From NCBI GenBank assembly GCA_031180665.1, contig JAPSLP010000006.1, positions 62,001-126,000 on the forward strand: a stretch of DNA of 64,000 nt, read 5' to 3'. Below the pieces are notes generated by a model, which saw only the letters and a list, made by a program, of their open reading frames with translations, made no database searches and was not told the origin of the DNA. The stretch is from Cupriavidus sp. (GTDB taxonomy: Bacteria > Pseudomonadota > Gammaproteobacteria > Burkholderiales > Burkholderiaceae). The position numbers and the translations under genes are program-made. Every line of letters starts with the position of its first letter. Within the stretch, counting starts at the first letter, position 1. This document shows positions 18,993-25,080 of this stretch, piece by piece.

Positions 18993-19505
18993 TCAGGGGA
19001 ACGCCGGCACAGCCGGGTCCATCCCCGCGAAGCGGGCTTCCGGATGCGAGCTGCGCAGCAGGGTTTCGATTTCCTCGCAACGGCCGCGCGGCACATCCAC
19101 GATCAGCAGGATCTTGCCGTCGGCGATATCGGCCTCGAAGGGCTTGAGCCGGCTGTTGGGCGCCGAGCTGCCGATCATGCTGGAGGCCCAGGCACCGAAC
19201 ACCGCGCCGAGCACGGCCAGCACGCCAACCAGGCCCCATTGCGGGGTATCGCCGACGATCGGGAACATCGCGACCACCACACCGGCAACCACGCCGACCG
19301 CACCGCCGATCATCAAACCCATCTCGGCAGCGTGAACGATATCGGAGGTCTGGAACAGATTGGCTTCATGCAGGCCGGTCATGTCCATGCCGTCGCGGGC
19401 GACGAAGTGAATATGCCGGTGTTCGACGCGGTTGATCAGCAGATCGTCCATGGTGCGACGAGCGCTGACCACGTCGGGCAATAACCAATAGATGCGTTTG
19501 CGCAT
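18993..19505 (-). CDS. DUF1269-like membrane protein
   Basis: Protein of 170 residues starting RKRIYWLLPDVVSARRTMDDLLINRVEHRHIHFVARDG, with a two-segment hydrophobic, Gly-rich hairpin at about residues 67-117 (MGLMIGGAVGVVAGVVVAMF and WGLVGVLAVLGAVFGAWASSM) and a C-terminal LLIVDVPRGRCEEIETLLR strand-helix. This layout matches DUF1269 proteins, whose function is unknown; the assignment is from memory. The Shine-Dalgarno GGAGG is well placed before ATG 19505. It appears monocistronic. Confidence 0.75.
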   Translation of the reverse strand: MRKRIYWLLPDVVSARRTMDDLLINRVEHRHIHFVARDGMDMTGLHEANLFQTSDIVHAAEMGLMIGGAVGVVAGVVVAMFPIVGDTPQWGLVGVLAVLGAVFGAWASSMIGSSAPNSRLKPFEADIADGKILLIVDVPRGRCEEIETLLRSSHPEARFAGMDPAVPAFP

Positions 19506-19726: not shown

Positions 19727-21151
19727 TCAGAACGTGATCGGCAGGCGCACGTTGACCTGCAGATCGGGCGTATCGCGCGTCAGCCCCGCGCCCACCGAGA
19801 TGTTGAGCGTATAGCGGTCGCTGAAGCGGTACGAATAGCCGACCAGCAACGAGCCCTGCGTGATCCGCACCGAGCCGGGCACGGTCTGCCCGTTCTGCTT
19901 GGTCGGCCAGATGATGCTCTGGTCGTAGCCGATGCTGAAGGACGCGCGCTCGTTCAGCGCCAGGCCCATGCCGAAGTTGAAGCCGAAGATGTCGCCCGGC
20001 TCGATCTTGCCCAGCGGCTCCTTCTGGCCGTTCAGCACGGTACGGCTGACGTTGTCGCGGCCGAAGTTGTGCAGATAGCTGAAGGTGCCGAAGAACACCG
20101 CCGGATCCGTCGGCAGCAGCCATGTGATACCGGGCTGGATCGCGTGGAAGCCGGTGCCGGTCGGCATGCCCAGCGGCAGCCCCGTGCCGGTGGTATTGCC
20201 GATGCAGCGCTGCACGCAATCGGTGACCACATCGAACGGGCTCTTGCCGGTATTGGACTTGTAGCGCAGCCAGCCGACGAAGTACGGCATGCGGTCGTTG
20301 CCGTAATTGAGCTGATAGCGCAGCGTCGCCTCGACATCGCCCAGTCCGCTGCCGCTCGAATTGAAGACGTTGTCGACCGCGGTGCCGGTGAACACCTCGC
20401 GGCTGATGGTCGAGCCCGAGCTATGCACGTACGGGACCTTGGCCTCGATTTCGAGCCGCTTGGTAATGCCGTAGCGGAAGGCGACCGACGCGACATAGGT
20501 CGACGTCTTGACCTCGCGCACATCGATCAGGCCGATCAGGATCGCCGGAATCACCGTATAGCCGACCAGCGCCACGCGGTTGTTGGACGAGTAGCCGTAC
20601 TGGAACGCCGGCTCGACCACCAGCCGGCCCGGAGGCGTCAGCACGCCGGGCTGATCGAAGATCGGCGCGATCTCCGGCGGGCGCGTATCGCGCTCCGGCG
20701 GCCGGCCGACCGGCTCCTGCGCCTGCGCGACCGTGGTGCTGCCGTTGGCGGGGCCCTGTGCCGGGGCTTGGGCCGGGGCTTGCGCCTGATTGACCGGCAC
20801 GTTGCGCGTATTCGGCAGGCCCGTGTTGCCGCTCGCGGCAGCGGGCGCCGTCGCCGCACCGGTCGCGATATCGGCCCCGGTCACGCCACCGCGCTGTCCA
20901 CCGCGCTTGTTGGCCAGCGCATCGACGCCGACGATGCTGCGCAGCTCGCGAATGGTGGCCTCTTGCTGGGCCATCGAGCGCTTCATTGCGTCGAGCACGG
21001 CGGCCTGTTCGGCGACCTCGCGTTTCAGGGCCTCCAGCTTGGCGGCCGTCGGTCCGTCGTCGGGCAGGTTCTGCGCGTGCGCCAATCCCCCCAGCAACAG
21101 CAAGGTCGAGCATCCCGCCTGCCGGATGCCCTGCATCGACCTTTTTCTCAT
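19727..21151 (-). CDS. Outer-membrane beta-barrel protein with N-terminal coiled coil (FapF-like pore)
   Basis: Protein of 474 residues: signal peptide ending LAHA (about 26), a heptad-rich helix at about 34-72 (AAKLEALKREVAEQAAVLDAMKRSMAQQ), a Pro/Ala/Gln-rich linker (about 85-165), then a beta-barrel of alternating strands ending in LPITF, with a terminal aromatic as in outer-membrane proteins. Coiled coil, linker and about 12-strand barrel is the architecture of FapF, the trimeric pore that exports Fap amyloid subunits in Pseudomonas. It is the last gene of an operon that also contains a C39 peptidase, as in fap operons. The homology is judged from architecture and context, not alignment. 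Confidence is high for an outer-membrane pore and moderate for FapF. Confidence 0.7.
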   Translation of the reverse strand: MRKRSMQGIRQAGCSTLLLLGGLAHAQNLPDDGPTAAKLEALKREVAEQAAVLDAMKRSMAQQEATIRELRSIVGVDALANKRGGQRGGVTGADIATGAATAPAAASGNTGLPNTRNVPVNQAQAPAQAPAQGPANGSTTVAQAQEPVGRPPERDTRPPEIAPIFDQPGVLTPPGRLVVEPAFQYGYSSNNRVALVGYTVIPAILIGLIDVREVKTSTYVASVAFRYGITKRLEIEAKVPYVHSSGSTISREVFTGTAVDNVFNSSGSGLGDVEATLRYQLNYGNDRMPYFVGWLRYKSNTGKSPFDVVTDCVQRCIGNTTGTGLPLGMPTGTGFHAIQPGITWLLPTDPAVFFGTFSYLHNFGRDNVSRTVLNGQKEPLGKIEPGDIFGFNFGMGLALNERASFSIGYDQSIIWPTKQNGQTVPGSVRITQGSLLVGYSYRFSDRYTLNISVGAGLTRDTPDLQVNVRLPITF

Positions 21152-21293
21152 GACTCTCCTCCCCCCGGATGGCGGACTGATTCAGGAGTCCGCGACCTGC
21201 TTTGCGTTGTTGCCATGCACCCCTGTGTGTCCGGATGCGACCGCTGCATCCGTTGCGTCTGCTTGCTTCCGTGTGGTTCCGTATGCGTTGGCT

Positions 21294-22169
21294 CTACCGC
21301 ATGCTCGCCGCCCGTTGCAGGGCGCTGTTCAATGCCGCGCCGGCGACCCCCGCGCGGAACGCCTGCAAGGTGTTCACGCCCGCATCGATGGTCAACAGGC
21401 TCTGGATCGACTGGTTGTTGAGCGAGTTCTGGATCACGGTCGCCGGCGTGCCCGCGAGCGCCCCCGCGTTGAAGCTGTTGCCCGGCCCGTTCTGGATCAG
21501 ATTGAGCAGGCCGTTGGTGGTAACGGAACCGGTTGCGGTGGCGATCACCGCCGGTGCCGGCATCGCGGGCGCGCCGGAAGACGATGAGGGCGATGGCGCC
21601 GCCACCGTGGCCGTGCCCGGCGTGGACGTGGACGTGCCTGGCTGTCCCGCGCTCGCCGAAGAGCTGGCGCTGCCGCTGCCGGGCGTCGACGTGCCCTGCC
21701 CCGCCTGGCCCAGCGCGTTGGCCGCCACCGAGCCCGCGTTGGCGGCGCTCTGCAGCGCAGTGGCGAGCCGCCCGGCCTGCTCCGCGGTGATGCGGCTGAC
21801 GTCGGGAATCACCAGGCTGGTCGATACCACCAGATTGCCGTTGATATAGACGGCGCGTTCGATGCCGAACGAAACCTGCAGGCCGCCGGTCTCGAAGCCG
21901 CCTCGCAGTTCTTCCAATCTTGCCGATGCGACCGGTTTCCATCCGGTCATGCCGCTGCGCGCGGCCGCGATGGCATCGTGATGCGGATCCGCGGCGGGGT
22001 GGGACGCCAGGCCGGCGTCCAGCCCCTCGTCGCGCGGGGCTTGCGCGCTCCACGCCTGGCCGGCGCAGGCCAGCCCCGCGCCGAGCAGCATCGCTGCCGC
22101 GGCCGAATTTGCAGCACCACGGGCAGCGCCGCGGCGCGCCGGCCGCGTAGTCATAGCTTGTCGATACAT
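21294..22169 (-). CDS. Secreted protein with internal LEELRGG motif, Fap-like operon
   Basis: Protein of 291 residues with an arginine-rich signal peptide (cleavage near AWSA-Q, residue 42). It carries LEELRGG (85-91), then a short beta-like segment (GLQVSFGIERAVYINGNLVV), a Ser/Thr/Gly/Pro low-complexity linker (about 155-205), and a C-terminal domain containing ATVIQNSLNNQSIQ. The same L-x-E-[IL]-R-G-G and TVIQN elements recur in the 159-residue protein two genes upstream. The gene begins 13 bases after the C39 peptidase stop. The motif resembles double-glycine leader sites cut by C39 proteases. No enzymatic motif is seen; a fibre subunit or chaperone role is inference. Confidence 0.65.
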   Translation of the reverse strand: MYRQAMTTRPARRGAARGAANSAAAAMLLGAGLACAGQAWSAQAPRDEGLDAGLASHPAADPHHDAIAAARSGMTGWKPVASARLEELRGGFETGGLQVSFGIERAVYINGNLVVSTSLVIPDVSRITAEQAGRLATALQSAANAGSVAANALGQAGQGTSTPGSGSASSSASAGQPGTSTSTPGTATVAAPSPSSSSGAPAMPAPAVIATATGSVTTNGLLNLIQNGPGNSFNAGALAGTPATVIQNSLNNQSIQSLLTIDAGVNTLQAFRAGVAGAALNSALQRAASMR

Positions 22170-22181
22170 GGTGACGGGTCC

Positions 22182-22922
22182 CTAGAAGTCTCCAGCGCCA
22201 TGTTTGGGCATGACGGTAAAGAACAGACTGTCCCGATTGACCCCCATCCAGTACGGCCCACTGGGTGCGACGCGCCAGTCCGAAGGCTGGTTGAAGCGCG
22301 CGAGATCGGTGCGGTTGTGGATCACGAACAGAAGACTACTGTCCCAGATCCGTTCGAAGTGTTCGCGAGACAACGCTCGCGTACCGAGCGCGGGATCGCC
22401 GACCAACACCCGATTGCCGCGTACGCCCTTGACCACGACGAAATGGTGGTAGCCGTTCTCGACCACCAGCACGATCGCCGGGACCTGGGTTTCCTCGAGC
22501 TTGGACAGCGGCAGTTCGAAGCCGTCGGCCATGAAGCCGCGCGATTCGAGGAAGCGCTTCATGTCCAGCAGCGAGAAGCCCTCGCGCTGGATCTTGGCGC
22601 GATCGCCGGTCAGGTACATCTGCTGGAACACTTCCGCTTCCGTGACCGGATGGCCGTACTGATAGGTGAGCAGGGTCGCCACTGCGGCCGAGCCGCAGCT
22701 GAAGTCGTACTGCTGCCGGATCGTGGTCTTGAAGCGTGCCTCCTTCAGGCTCACCGTCCGGATCTTGTAGTCGCTGCCGGCCGGTTGAAGCACTACCGTA
22801 TCGGCGGCGTGCGCCGGCACCATGGCCGACGCCAAGGCGAGCGCCGCCAGCGCGGCAAGGCGTAGCAGCTTGATGACCGGCTTGATCACCGGCTTCATGA
22901 CCGGCTTCATGGCCCCCTTCAT
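22182..22922 (-). CDS. C39-family cysteine peptidase (FapD-like)
   Basis: Protein of 246 residues: a lysine-rich N-terminus made of MKPV-type repeats, a signal peptide to about AHA (39), then a stand-alone C39 peptidase domain without ABC transporter parts. Catalytic residues are all present: Gln70 and Cys76 in RQQYDFSCGSAA, His160 in YHHFVVVKG, Asp176 in GDPALG. Stand-alone C39 peptidases are a defining member (FapD) of the Fap functional-amyloid operon. ATG overlaps the stop of the upstream 159-residue gene (ATGA), indicating coupling. Probable substrates are the two neighbouring proteins carrying LxE[IL]RGG sites. The peptidase would act in the periplasm if the signal is cleaved. Confidence 0.82.
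   Translation of the reverse strand: MKGAMKPVMKPVIKPVIKLLRLAALAALALASAMVPAHAADTVVLQPAGSDYKIRTVSLKEARFKTTIRQQYDFSCGSAAVATLLTYQYGHPVTEAEVFQQMYLTGDRAKIQREGFSLLDMKRFLESRGFMADGFELPLSKLEETQVPAIVLVVENGYHHFVVVKGVRGNRVLVGDPALGTRALSREHFERIWDSSLLFVIHNRTDLARFNQPSDWRVAPSGPYWMGVNRDSLFFTVMPKHGAGDF
22870..22905. repeat. 12-bp tandem repeat inside the C39 peptidase start
   Basis: Three tandem 12-base units (22870-22881, 22882-22893, 22894-22905) differing at one to two bases, with a degenerate fourth to 22917. They encode the MKPV/IKPV repeat in the positively charged n-region of the signal peptide, so slippage would lengthen or shorten it by four residues without changing frame. Confidence 0.75.
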
Positions 22923-23398
22923 GGTCCAAATCGCACGTTCAGAATCGTCGCGTTCTGGATCAGCGTGTTGGCGCCGGTGTTCTGTATCACCGTGGGCAGG
23001 CCGCTCGCATTGGCGAACGCCCCATCCGAAATGGCGTTGCTGCCCGTGATGACGCGGTTGGCGGTGTTGTCCGCCACCACGCCGGCCAGGCGCATGTCGT
23101 TGACCACCACTTCGGCGCCGCCGCGGATCTCGGCCAGCGCGTCGGTGCCAACCGGCTTGCCCAGGCCGGCGAGCACGGTGCCCGTCTGCCCTTGCGCCGA
23201 TGCATCGACCGTTGTCTGCGGTGTCGCAGCCACGGTGGTGTCCTTGCCGTTCTCATCCGGCATGCCGACCGTGGTCGGCATCGCGGCCATCGGGCTCGCC
23301 GCGTCTGGCGCGGCGGGCGGCTCTGCCGCGGCGTGCAGGCCGGGCCAGAGCAGGAATGCTGTCGTCAAAGCTCCGACAGCGGTGCGGACCGCTCGCAT
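22919..23398 (-). CDS. Small secreted protein with LAEIRGG motif, Fap-like operon
   Basis: Protein of 159 residues with a signal peptide (cleavage near HAAA, 25), a low-complexity Ala/Pro/Thr/Met stretch to about 75, LAEIRGG (88-94), and a C-terminal domain of about 65 residues ending LPTVIQNTGANTLIQNATILNVRFGP. The TVIQN element and the double-Gly motif are shared with the 291-residue protein. Cleavage after G94 would release a 65-residue Asn/Ile/Val-rich domain. The start ATG 23398 has an AAGGAGG Shine-Dalgarno; the longer open frame to 23506 is not used. It overlaps the C39 gene by ATGA. The protein is not recognised as any named family. Confidence 0.68.
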   Translation of the reverse strand: MRAVRTAVGALTTAFLLWPGLHAAAEPPAAPDAASPMAAMPTTVGMPDENGKDTTVAATPQTTVDASAQGQTGTVLAGLGKPVGTDALAEIRGGAEVVVNDMRLAGVVADNTANRVITGSNAISDGAFANASGLPTVIQNTGANTLIQNATILNVRFGP

Positions 23399-23534
23399 GA
23401 TGGTGCCTCCTTGTGTCCCGTCGAACGGGCGTCCCGACGCGAGGCCGGGACGCCCACTCCTGCAGAGCAACACCAACGCAAGGCGCGATGCCGGCGCGCC
23501 ATCCACGCGCCGGCATGCGCGCCCGCGCAGTGTC

Positions 23535-24926
23535 TTACCTGCCTACAGCCAGGTTGGCCTGGACCGTGACGGCCTGTTGCACCAGCGAGCCGAGGCCGCT
23601 GTTCTGGTTGGCGATCATGATGCCGGCCGCCGACTGCCCGACGCTGCTCATCGCGTTGGACATGTTGAACGTGCCCGCATCGGCCAGCGCCGCGCCGCCA
23701 GCACCACCGGCGCCGCCGGCCGCACCGTTGCCAACGCCGCCGGTACCGCCCGCACCCGCGCCACCGGCACCGCCGGCACCGCTGGCCGCACCAGCCGCGC
23801 CGACCGCGCCGTTGCCGGCGGTCGCGTTGCCATTGCTCGCGGTGGTGGTCGCGCCGCCATTGGTGGCATTGCCGCCGGCGCCGCCGTTACCGGCCACGCT
23901 GGTCTGCGCGCCGCCCGCGCCGCCGGTGCCCGTGCCGGCACCGCCCGAAGCGGTCGCCGCACCACCGGTGCCCGCGCCACCCGCACCGCCAGTACCGGTG
24001 CCAGCGCCGCCAGTGGCCGCCACTGCGCCAGTGGTACCAGCGCCGCCCGCTCCGCCCGCAGCGCCGGACGTGCCGCCCGCGGTCGTCACTGCGCCGCCGG
24101 TGCCAGCGCCGCCCGCACCCGCGGTGGTCGCCGTGGTGTCGGCGCCAGGACCGCGCGCGCCGCCGCCGCTCGAGCTGCTGCTGCCGCCCAGGCCGGCGCT
24201 CGCGCCGAGCGAGCCGCCCGAGGCCGCACCGGCACCGCCGCCATCGCCGCCGCCGGCCAGGCTGCCGCCGGTGCCGTTACCGCCGGCACCGGTACCGTTG
24301 GCACCGCGAGCACCGACGCCGACGCTGGCGGCCAAGGCGCCGCCACCGGTGCCGACGCCATTCGCGCCCCGGCCCGCGGTGCCGTTGGCGTTGCCGCCAT
24401 AGCCGCCGCGACCCGCCGTTGCGCTGCCGTTGGTGGCGTCGCCCGCGGTCGCATCGCCAATGCTGGCCATGCCGCCGGCACCGCCGTTACCGCCAGCGCC
24501 ACCATTGCCGCTGTTGCCGCCATCGCCGCCGGTGCCACCCATGGCATTGCCGCCCGTGCCCGTGCCACCGCGACCGCCGGCGCCGCCGCTGGCGTTACCC
24601 AGCTGACGAGCCACGTTGCCGATGTGGCTGACGGTCAGGCCGCTGACCGTGCCGTTCAGGCGCGTCATCGCGACTGCACGGCTCGTGTTGAAGGCATTGG
24701 AGAAGTTGGCGGTCGAGGTGGAGCCGTTGTTTGCCGCAGTCGTGCCCAGGCCCTCAGCCCATGCGCGTCCGCGGTTCTCCGAATTGGTCTTGGTCGTGGT
24801 GGTGGTGTCGTTGTCGGTGACGTTGACATTCACCGCCACGGCATCGTCGGTTGCGGTCTGTGCCAAGGCGTGCCCGGTCACCCCGAGGGTCAGGGCGACG
24901 GCGGACGCGAGTAAGGTCTTTTTCAT
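23535..24926 (-). CDS. Glycine-rich repetitive exported protein (putative fibre subunit)
   Basis: Protein of 463 residues. Signal peptide to HALAQ (about 23); an N-terminal Asn/Thr/Val-rich domain (24-110) with AVNVNVTDNDTTTTTKTNSEN; about 300 residues of GGAGG/GTGG/GNGG repeats (111-417); and a conserved-looking C-terminal domain (418-463) with NAMSSVGQSAAGIMIANQ and SLVQQAVTVQANL. It contains no Cys. It is the first gene of the operon and would be the most abundant product, as expected for a structural subunit exported through the FapF-like pore. Composition differs from canonical FapB/FapC (Asn/Gln/Ala repeats), and the Gly-rich part recalls PE_PGRS-like sequence. No enzymatic motif is seen. 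The Shine-Dalgarno is GGGAGC. Confidence 0.7.
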   Translation of the reverse strand: MKKTLLASAVALTLGVTGHALAQTATDDAVAVNVNVTDNDTTTTTKTNSENRGRAWAEGLGTTAANNGSTSTANFSNAFNTSRAVAMTRLNGTVSGLTVSHIGNVARQLGNASGGAGGRGGTGTGGNAMGGTGGDGGNSGNGGAGGNGGAGGMASIGDATAGDATNGSATAGRGGYGGNANGTAGRGANGVGTGGGALAASVGVGARGANGTGAGGNGTGGSLAGGGDGGGAGAASGGSLGASAGLGGSSSSSGGGARGPGADTTATTAGAGGAGTGGAVTTAGGTSGAAGGAGGAGTTGAVAATGGAGTGTGGAGGAGTGGAATASGGAGTGTGGAGGAQTSVAGNGGAGGNATNGGATTTASNGNATAGNGAVGAAGAASGAGGAGGAGAGGTGGVGNGAAGGAGGAGGAALADAGTFNMSNAMSSVGQSAAGIMIANQNSGLGSLVQQAVTVQANLAVGR

Positions 24927-25080
24927 ACATAGCTCCCAGGAGGATGTTCTCTGCGACTCAGCCCGGCGCCGCCCCCGTCAGACGGAAAATGAAGCGGTAG
25001 CCAGGTCATGGTCCGGCATTGGCCAAACCGAAGCGCCCTGCGCATATTCAGTGCCAGCCGCCGGCTCGGGCGCCGCTTTC

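What the first reader, a model, noticed from the sequence alone, without database searches (positions are those of the whole stretch)
19727..24926. Divergent Fap-type exported-fibre operon with a Gly-rich subunit
Five minus-strand genes form one probable operon: Gly-rich repeat protein, 159-residue secreted protein, stand-alone C39 peptidase, 291-residue secreted protein, and an outer-membrane pore with N-terminal coiled coil. In Pseudomonas fap operons a C39 peptidase (FapD) and a coiled-coil pore (FapF) accompany the amyloid subunits FapB/FapC. Here those two hallmarks remain, but the candidate structural protein is Gly-rich rather than Asn/Gln-repeat and has no C-terminal Cys pair. It may be a new branch of the Fap system or a separate matrix-fibre system using the same export logic.
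Basis: partly seen in the sequence, partly recalled or inferred. Interest (0 to 1): 0.78.

Follow-up and report, generated by a model that had tools for sequence, protein, structure and literature searches.

The report
Fap sister operon, double-glycine processing sites
A Cupriavidus gene cluster closely related to, but distinct from, the Pseudomonas amyloid-fibre export system carries, in the proteins next to its protease, a conserved cutting signal that suggests what this class of protease cuts, a question still open for the Pseudomonas system.

Summary
The five genes exist as described and form a conserved unit. The pore is a FapF homologue; the peptidase falls in a clade separate from true FapD, and NCBI's FapD and FapF equivalog cut-offs are not met. 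All five genes are linked in 73 of 80 named loci. So this is a sister system of Fap, not fapABCDEF itself.

The 159-aa and 291-aa proteins each carry, roughly 50-70 residues after an apparent Sec signal, the classical C39 'double-glycine' motif (LAEIRGG, LEELRGG). [LM]-x3-[R/S/T/C]-G-G is present in 80/80 and 78/78 of the named relatives, against 4% and 6% of shuffles; more distant 159-aa relatives vary (12 of 19 keep GG). A similar site often follows the coiled coil of the pore. True FapE has the motif with Arg/Lys as last residue. FapD's substrate is described in print as unknown or suspected, so this is a direct, testable candidate.

The Gly-rich protein is not only Gly-rich: its C-terminus carries a Fap-like Gln/Asn module shared with the 159-aa protein. 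An RpoN-type promoter, as reported for fap, precedes the operon. Cleavage, export and fibre formation are inferred, not shown.

The parts
25042..25056 (-). RpoN (sigma-54) -24/-12 promoter-like site TGGCACTGAATATGC, 130 nt before the Gly-rich ATG
   Evidence: TGG[CT]A[CT]N6TGC within 300 nt upstream in 45 of 67 analysable named relatives against 2.4% of random windows (pattern fixed after the window site had been seen); fap in P. fluorescens PF07 has a -24/-12 promoter placed by 5'-RACE (PMC9207406 passages)
23535..24926 (-). Gly-rich secreted protein, 463 aa, probable main fibre/matrix subunit
   Evidence: no Pfam or NCBIfam match at E 1
23538..23669 (-). C-terminal Fap-like Gln/Asn module of the Gly-rich protein (residues 420-463)
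   Evidence: hhalign to the C-terminus of the 159-aa family E 3e-8, probability 94%
22919..23398 (-). 159-aa secreted protein, probable minor/nucleator subunit; predicted mature part 65 aa
   Evidence: matched by an iterated FapB profile
23117..23137 (-). double-glycine processing site LAEIRGG (residues 88-94) in the 159-aa protein
   Evidence: [LM]-x3-[RSTC]-G-G in 80 of 80 named relatives, also when limited to the stretch before the Gln/Asn module; shuffles 3.75%; FapE-trained matrix 2 of 2000 shuffles as good
22928..23050 (-). C-terminal Gln/Asn module of the 159-aa protein (residues 117-157)
22182..22922 (-). stand-alone C39 cysteine peptidase with signal-like N-terminus; Q70, C76, H160, D176 kept
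   Evidence: PF03412 8.9e-25; these residues invariant in 14 aligned relatives; profile matches double-glycine peptidases 6mpz and 4ry2
21294..22169 (-). 291-aa secreted protein, FapE-like; predicted mature part 200 aa
   Evidence: hhalign to FapE family: C-terminus E 3.4e-8, probability 95%; site region E 2.8e-5, probability 48%. A FapE profile searched by HMMER does not match it
21897..21917 (-). double-glycine processing site LEELRGG (residues 85-91) in the 291-aa protein
   Evidence: R89, G90, G91 are the only invariant columns besides M1 in 16 diverse relatives; L-x3-R-G-G in 78 of 78 named relatives
21360..21476 (-). C-terminal Gln/Asn module of the 291-aa protein (residues 232-270)
   Evidence: hhalign 159-aa family against 291-aa family E 2.2e-13
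19727..21151 (-). FapF-like outer-membrane pore: modelled helix 35-78 (coiled coil), disordered linker, beta barrel (177-472)
   Evidence: 5o67, 1.1e-27; AF2 model and Foldseek: first 18 rows all FapF chains, best E 2.4e-21, TM-score 0.78 by target and 0.50 by query
20897..20917 (-). possible third processing site LANKRGG (residues 79-85) between coiled coil and barrel
   Evidence: [LMIVF]-x3-R-G-[GRKTA] in the linker of 47 of 73 named pores, shuffles 3.7%; 16 of 17 Cupriavidus-group pores; not significant in this one pore by the FapE matrix (402 of 2000 shuffles)

Best explanation
A sister of the Fap amyloid-export system that uses canonical double-glycine processing in the periplasm. Proposed path: all five proteins cross the inner membrane by Sec (inferred). 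The peptidase works in the periplasm, as FapD was shown to do. It cuts the 159-aa and 291-aa proproteins after LxxxRGG, releasing a 65-aa and a 200-aa mature subunit (inferred from the conserved motif), and may also cut the pore between its coiled coil and barrel, resetting or gating the channel (weaker inference). The Gly-rich protein, in which no such site stands out, goes out uncut. Outside, the shared C-terminal Gln/Asn module of the three proteins, related to the Fap repeat, would stack into the fibre core; the 159-aa protein would nucleate and the 291-aa one would anchor or cap, while the Gly-rich stretch decorates the fibre (inferred). Transcription is likely RpoN-dependent, as for fap.
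For: Pore = FapF homologue. Peptidase = C39 with catalytic residues kept, in a clade of its own beside FapD (100/99 and 99/96). Linkage 73 of 80. Motif 80/80 and 78/78 with shuffles 4% and 6%, and 15 of 230 other secreted genes; the site is the most conserved part of the 291-aa family. A matrix trained only on true FapE sites finds both window sites (2 and 1 of 2000 shuffles as good). Some relatives carry two or three copies of the site. AF2 puts a short helix at residues 82-89 of the 291-aa protein just before the cut (low-confidence model). Gln/Asn module shared. RpoN-type site 45 of 67. In an E. coli secretion assay of the fap operon, FapD C38A abolished FapC secretion, and in Pseudomonas sp. 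UK4 FapE was the only Fap protein with complete N-terminal processing by mass spectrometry (PMC5557850 passages).
Against: No cleavage, export or fibre was observed; everything past homology is inference. In 7 of the 19 diverse 159-aa relatives aligned the GG is not kept (RGR, RGT, RGM, RAM, SGR, RAK, SGR). True FapE has Arg/Lys as last residue in the 31 examined (30 by regex, one by eye), which is not the canonical GG. The pore site is absent by regex in 26 of 73 named pores and 24 of 29 true-Fap pores, and 23 of 230 other secreted genes match that looser pattern. The AF2 model of the 291-aa protein is poor (mean pLDDT 55.6). The link of the 291-aa protein to FapE rests on profile-profile comparison; HMMER with a FapE profile does not find it. 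No signal-peptide predictor was available.
Confidence: 0.72

Rival explanations
1. It is simply a diverged fapABCDEF operon with the same parts and mechanism, and the double-glycine sites are an inherited Fap feature, not a new variant.
For: Collinear peptidase-FapE-pore order, homologous pore and peptidase, FapE-like gene with site, FapB profile match to the 159-aa protein, RpoN-type promoter.
Against: Peptidase in a separate clade; FapD/FapF equivalog cut-offs not met (138 of 330 and 139.7 of 700 bits); profiles of FapA and FapC match no gene of the window; three same-genus genomes (G001, G021, G023) hold a Fap-clade peptidase locus as well as this one; last site residue Gly, not Arg/Lys.
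Confidence: 0.2
2. The 65-residue mature product is a secreted microcin-like or autolysis peptide, as proposed for the Neisseria nap island (C39 NapP, FapF-like NapF, double-glycine peptides), and not a fibre part.
For: Same pairing of C39, FapF-like pore and double-glycine substrates (PMC11798529 passages).
Against: Mature 159 product has pI 4.7 and charge -1.2, whereas NapA-C are cationic; its sequence is mostly a Fap-like Gln/Asn module shared with the Gly-rich and 291-aa proteins.
Confidence: 0.06
3. A protein matrix or sheath that is not amyloid: the Gly-rich protein forms a gel-like coat and the system merely shares Fap's export machinery.
For: Middle region is low-complexity with composition varying from Gly-rich to Asn/Ser-rich between genera.
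Against: C-terminal Fap-like module in the secreted proteins.
Confidence: 0.15

Closest known systems
Fap (functional amyloid of Pseudomonas) fapABCDEF
   Same: Sec-type C39 peptidase, FapF pore with coiled coil, FapE-like protein with an LxxxRG- site, Gln/Asn module, RpoN-type promoter
   Different: Peptidase in a separate clade; site ends GG not GR/GK; no FapA match; one module per protein instead of several repeats; main subunit Gly-rich; conserved 159-aa subunit with its own site
nap island of Neisseria (NapP, NapF, NapA-C)
   Same: C39 peptidase plus FapF-like pore plus double-glycine substrates
   Different: Naps are small cationic peptides linked to autolysis; no Gly-rich partner or FapE-like gene is mentioned in the passages read
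Fil putative pilus system (NCBIfam FilB, FilC)
   Same: C39 peptidase and a related barrel; the window peptidase scores almost as well against FilB (128 bits) as FapD (138 bits)
   Different: Pore scores 43.7 bits against FilC and 139.7 against FapF
Double-glycine peptidase domains of bacteriocin ABC transporters (6mpz, PCAT1 4ry2)
   Same: Catalytic fold and expected recognition motif
   Different: Here stand-alone and probably periplasmic; substrates first cross by Sec

Membership tests
Fap system | FapF pore homologue with N-terminal coiled coil | tested here: met
   5o67 1.1e-27; AF2 helix 35-78 and barrel, Foldseek FapF
Fap system | NCBIfam equivalog cut-offs for FapD (330 bits) and FapF (700 bits) | tested here: not met
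   138 and 139.7 bits; the FapD cut-off was reached in 0 of 369 sampled class genomes and the FapF one in 7 of 398 phylum genomes, so they are tight
Fap system | Peptidase within the FapD clade | tested here: not met
   Separate 100/99 clade of 30 rows; FapD clade 99/96 of 31 rows
Fap system | FapC with several Gln/Asn repeats | tested here: not met
   FapC profile matches no window gene; one C-terminal module and a Gly-rich middle
Fap system | FapA gene | tested here: inconclusive
Fap system | FapE homologue | tested here: met
   hhalign 3.4e-8 (probability 95%) and 2.8e-5 (48%); HMMER with a FapE profile gives no match
Fap system | Amyloid fibres on the cell surface | not testable with these tools
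   needs the bench
C39 double-glycine peptidases | C39 fold with Gln, Cys, His, Asp | tested here: met
   PF03412 8.9e-25; Q70, C76, H160, D176 invariant in 14
C39 double-glycine peptidases | Adjacent candidate substrates with a double-glycine leader | tested here: met
   80/80 and 78/78 named relatives; 12 of 19 in a more diverse 159-aa set
C39 double-glycine peptidases | Cleavage after GG | not testable with these tools
   needs protein chemistry
Fil pilus system | FilB and FilC over cut-off | tested here: not met
   128.1 of 475 and 43.7 of 630 bits
Neisseria nap island type | Small cationic double-glycine peptides | tested here: not met
   Mature 159 product charge -1.2 at pH 7

The most novel reading that the evidence does not exclude
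Two-stage maturation (Sec, then double-glycine cleavage in the periplasm) is the founding mechanism of the whole Fap superfamily. FapE in Pseudomonas keeps the same site, shifted from G-G to G-R/K, and is the long-sought substrate of FapD; in the sister system two subunits and the pore itself are cut by one peptidase.
Probability: 0.55. Interest if true: 0.78.

Novelty: new variant of a known kind. Interest (0 to 1): 0.64.

Why it matters
FapD's protease activity is needed for Fap secretion in an E. coli assay, yet its substrate is called unclear in 2017 and undetermined in 2018, and a 2025 review only says it is thought to process FapE and FapF (passages). The 2017 paper says Fap proteins lack canonical C39 sequences, though it points to GG and GA motifs in FapE and before the FapF barrel. 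The sister system shows the canonical motif in both genes flanking the peptidase in all 78-80 named relatives examined, and true FapE has the same motif in altered form. That turns an open question into a peptide-cleavage assay. It also describes a widespread second export lineage in Burkholderiales and Xanthomonadales.

Tried and rejected
Pfam and NCBIfam on the Gly-rich, 159-aa and 291-aa proteins: nothing useful (an SDR match to the 159-aa protein at 0.0041, 16.5 of 373 bits, is taken as chance). AF2 of the 291-aa protein: mean pLDDT 55.6, so no fold search was made. A link between the last site residue and single peptidase residues: the two classes are also two clades, so nothing can be concluded. 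FapE matrix on the window pore: 402 of 2000 shuffles as good, so the pore site rests on conservation alone. Other C39 loci (Fil-like and unassigned): of 17 looked at, clear leader-like motifs only in L115 and L182 and, in my judgement, weak matches in L164 and L187, so the motif does not come with every C39/pore pair. Annotation of Cupriavidus metallidurans CH34 at this place: none held. Lipoprotein reading of the 291-aa N-terminus: the Cys is not kept in L104. First-pass regexes for the last site residue gave wrong picks in some 291-like and 159-like proteins (also L243) and were replaced. Paper searches for earlier notice of these sites. In the passages I read of seven of the listed Fap papers the LxxxRG[GRK] site is not described; supplementary files could not be read, and PMC5557850 refers to a supplementary figure on GG/GA motifs in FapE. 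Only open-licence papers are held.
Full report
WHAT IS THERE. The window lies in an unnamed 5.47 Mb draft genome (G000:C88, 94 contigs, 92% complete) whose nearest named peptidase relatives are Cupriavidus. Five minus-strand genes, 24926 to 19727, encode a 463-aa Gly-rich protein, a 159-aa protein, a 246-aa C39 peptidase, a 291-aa protein and a 474-aa pore, with gaps of 136, -4, 12 and 142 nt. One such peptidase and one 159-like gene were found in this genome.

PEPTIDASE AND PORE. The peptidase matches PF03412 (8.9e-25), NCBIfam FapD (2.7e-40, 138 bits, cut-off 330) and FilB (128 bits, cut-off 475). The pore matches NCBIfam FapF (139.7 bits, cut-off 700) and solved FapF (5o67, 1.1e-27). Its AF2 model (mean pLDDT 68.6; most ten-residue blocks of the barrel region above 80) has a helix 35-78, a stretch of low confidence 75-169 and a barrel; the first 18 Foldseek rows are all FapF chains (best E 2.4e-21, TM-score 0.78 by target, 0.50 by query).

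LINKAGE AND KINSHIP. With profiles built on the unnamed loci L091-L190 (six of the 80 named peptidases are identical to one of those), the 159-like gene lies upstream in 80 of 80, the 291-like downstream in 78, a pore within 8 kb in 78 (56 same strand, 22 opposite), the Gly-type C-terminus in 76, and all in 73. A maximum-likelihood tree of 81 peptidases puts those with a 291-like neighbour (30 rows, window included) in one clade (100/99) and those of fap operons in another (31 rows, 99/96, one of them labelled 'other' because no FapE was called in its locus); the remaining 20 rows lie outside both. Peptidases of the Fap clade also occur in three genomes of the window's genus (L111, L112, L113) that hold this system too.

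THE DOUBLE-GLYCINE SITES. The 159-aa protein contains LAEIRGG (residues 88-94) and the 291-aa protein LEELRGG (85-91). The classical leader pattern, hydrophobic at -7 and -4 and G-G at -2 and -1, is recalled from general knowledge; that C39 enzymes usually cut at a GG motif is stated in PMC5557850 (passages). In the 80 named loci [LM]-x3-[RSTC]-G-G is found in 80 of 80 159-like and 78 of 78 291-like frames, against 3.75% and 6.3% of shuffles, in 15 of 230 other secreted genes and 54 of 776 other called genes of the same loci ('secreted' by my crude rule, and the gene finder also calls some spurious frames). Limited to the stretch before the Gln/Asn module it is still 80 of 80, and all 78 291-like frames have L-x3-R-G-G. 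In the 159-like proteins the residue before GG is Arg in 67, Ser or Thr in 12 and Cys in one. In 16 diverse 291-like proteins R89, G90, G91 are the only invariant columns besides the start Met; L85, F92, N248, I255 and R291 are nearly so. In 19 diverse 159-like proteins 12 have GG and seven read RGR, RGT, RGM, RAM, SGR, RAK or SGR. Two or three copies of the site occur in L203, L205 and L105. Eighteen of the 80 named loci are from the window's own group (L191-L208), so the counts are not independent events.

TRUE FAP. The FapE family aligns with the 291-aa family at both ends by hhalign (C-terminus 3.4e-8, probability 95%; site region 2.8e-5, probability 48%); HMMER with a FapE profile does not match the window protein. 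In 31 FapE-type proteins examined the residue after R-G is Arg in 19 and Lys in 11, and the one regex miss reads LATQTGK. A matrix trained on 26 different FapE sites, leaving the last residue free, scores the window sites so that 2 (159 aa) and 1 (291 aa) of 2000 shuffles do as well. Over the loci it exceeds 9 bits in 57% of 42 291-like and 38% of 42 159-like proteins, 9% of 98 pores, 3% of 249 other secreted proteins, 3% of 99 peptidases, 0 of 19 FapA and 0 of 15 Gly-type proteins. [quoted passage not shown] coli, that Fap proteins have no canonical C39 sequence but FapE has GG and GA motifs, that GG/GA motifs precede the FapF barrel construct, that the target is unclear, and that no peptides were seen in about the first 70 residues of FapE. 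PMC5135000 (passages) notes a double-glycine motif in FapF.

THE PORE. [LMIVF]-x3-R-G-[GRKTA] occurs between coiled coil and barrel in 47 of 73 named pores (16 of 17 in the Cupriavidus group, 31 of 56 elsewhere) against 3.7% of shuffles; 23 of 230 other secreted genes match this looser pattern in their N-terminal part, and 5 of 29 true-Fap pores do. In the window it reads LANKRGG at 79-85, just after the modelled helix. By the FapE matrix alone it is not significant (402 of 2000 shuffles).

THE STRUCTURAL PROTEIN. Its C-terminal part (alignment columns for residues 415-463) aligns with the C-terminus of the 159-aa family (3e-8, probability 94%), and only weakly with FapB (0.0015, 7%) and the 291-aa family (0.014, 1%). 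The 159-aa and 291-aa families share the module at 2.2e-13, and the 159-aa family matches FapB at 4e-5 (probability 70%); an iterated FapB profile also matches the window 159-aa protein. In other genera the large protein in the same place has similar ends and a middle that ranges from about 30% Gly to Asn/Ser-rich. The Gly-type proteins carry the double-glycine motif in 3 of 41, like the background.

REGULATION. TGGCACTGAATATGC lies 130 nt before the first ATG. TGG[CT]A[CT]N6TGC, a pattern set after the window site had been seen, occurs within 300 nt upstream in 45 of the 67 named loci that could be examined (of 80; 4 without the gene, 9 at a contig edge), 30 of 51 outside the Cupriavidus group, against 80 of 3350 random windows and 15 of 3350 shuffles. 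In P. fluorescens PF07 fapA-E has a -24/-12 promoter placed by 5'-RACE and is down-regulated without RpoN or the adjacent activator BrfA (PMC9207406, abstract and passages). A regex for such activators finds one in 17 of 31 fap-type, 11 of 42 type-II and 2 of 27 other loci, and in 10 of 80 named loci. Four neighbours checked by Pfam all have Sigma54_activat and VpsR domains, including one the regex missed (L120), so the counts are low. The regex finds none in the window; the genome has two VpsR-domain genes over cut-off elsewhere.

MECHANISM AND STANDING. Shown by sequence: homology, linkage, motif conservation, shared module, promoter-like site. Inferred: Sec targeting, periplasmic location, cleavage, export, fibre. 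The system works like Fap but fails three membership features tested (equivalog cut-offs, FapD clade, multi-repeat FapC), so it is filed as a sister variant. On checking, facts were mended but none called for a change of the odds.

Noticed in passing
L139:4673-5086, L142:4306-4728, L145:6657-7073: In these three loci a separate secreted 137-140-aa coiled-coil-like protein lies between the 291-like gene and the pore; the pores of L139 and L145 also keep a long helical N-terminus of their own.
   Followed up: no
L115:3246-5962: In a same-genus genome a short C39/pore pair sits beside small secreted proteins, one with LSATEMESVEGS, resembling the Neisseria nap arrangement.
   Followed up: no
L203, L205, L105 (291-like genes): Two to three copies of the double-glycine site with similar flanks in one protein.
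   Followed up: partly
L116:11757-11966: A 69-aa ORF upstream of a fap-type operon begins MNDISLDDQVLSRQRGG, a double-glycine-like start without an obvious N-terminal signal peptide.
   Followed up: no
window 18993-19505: A 170-aa gene directly after the pore (weak DUF1269 likeness, below cut-off); a 170-aa gene stands in the same place in 13 of the 18 Cupriavidus-group loci L191-L208. Probably only shared gene order.
   Followed up: no
window 22461-22463 (peptidase residue V154): The FapD class has Asp/Glu at this position, six before the catalytic His, in 26 of 30, while the sister class has mostly Asn or Val; it could relate to Arg/Lys against Gly in the substrate but is confounded by clade.
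   Followed up: partly
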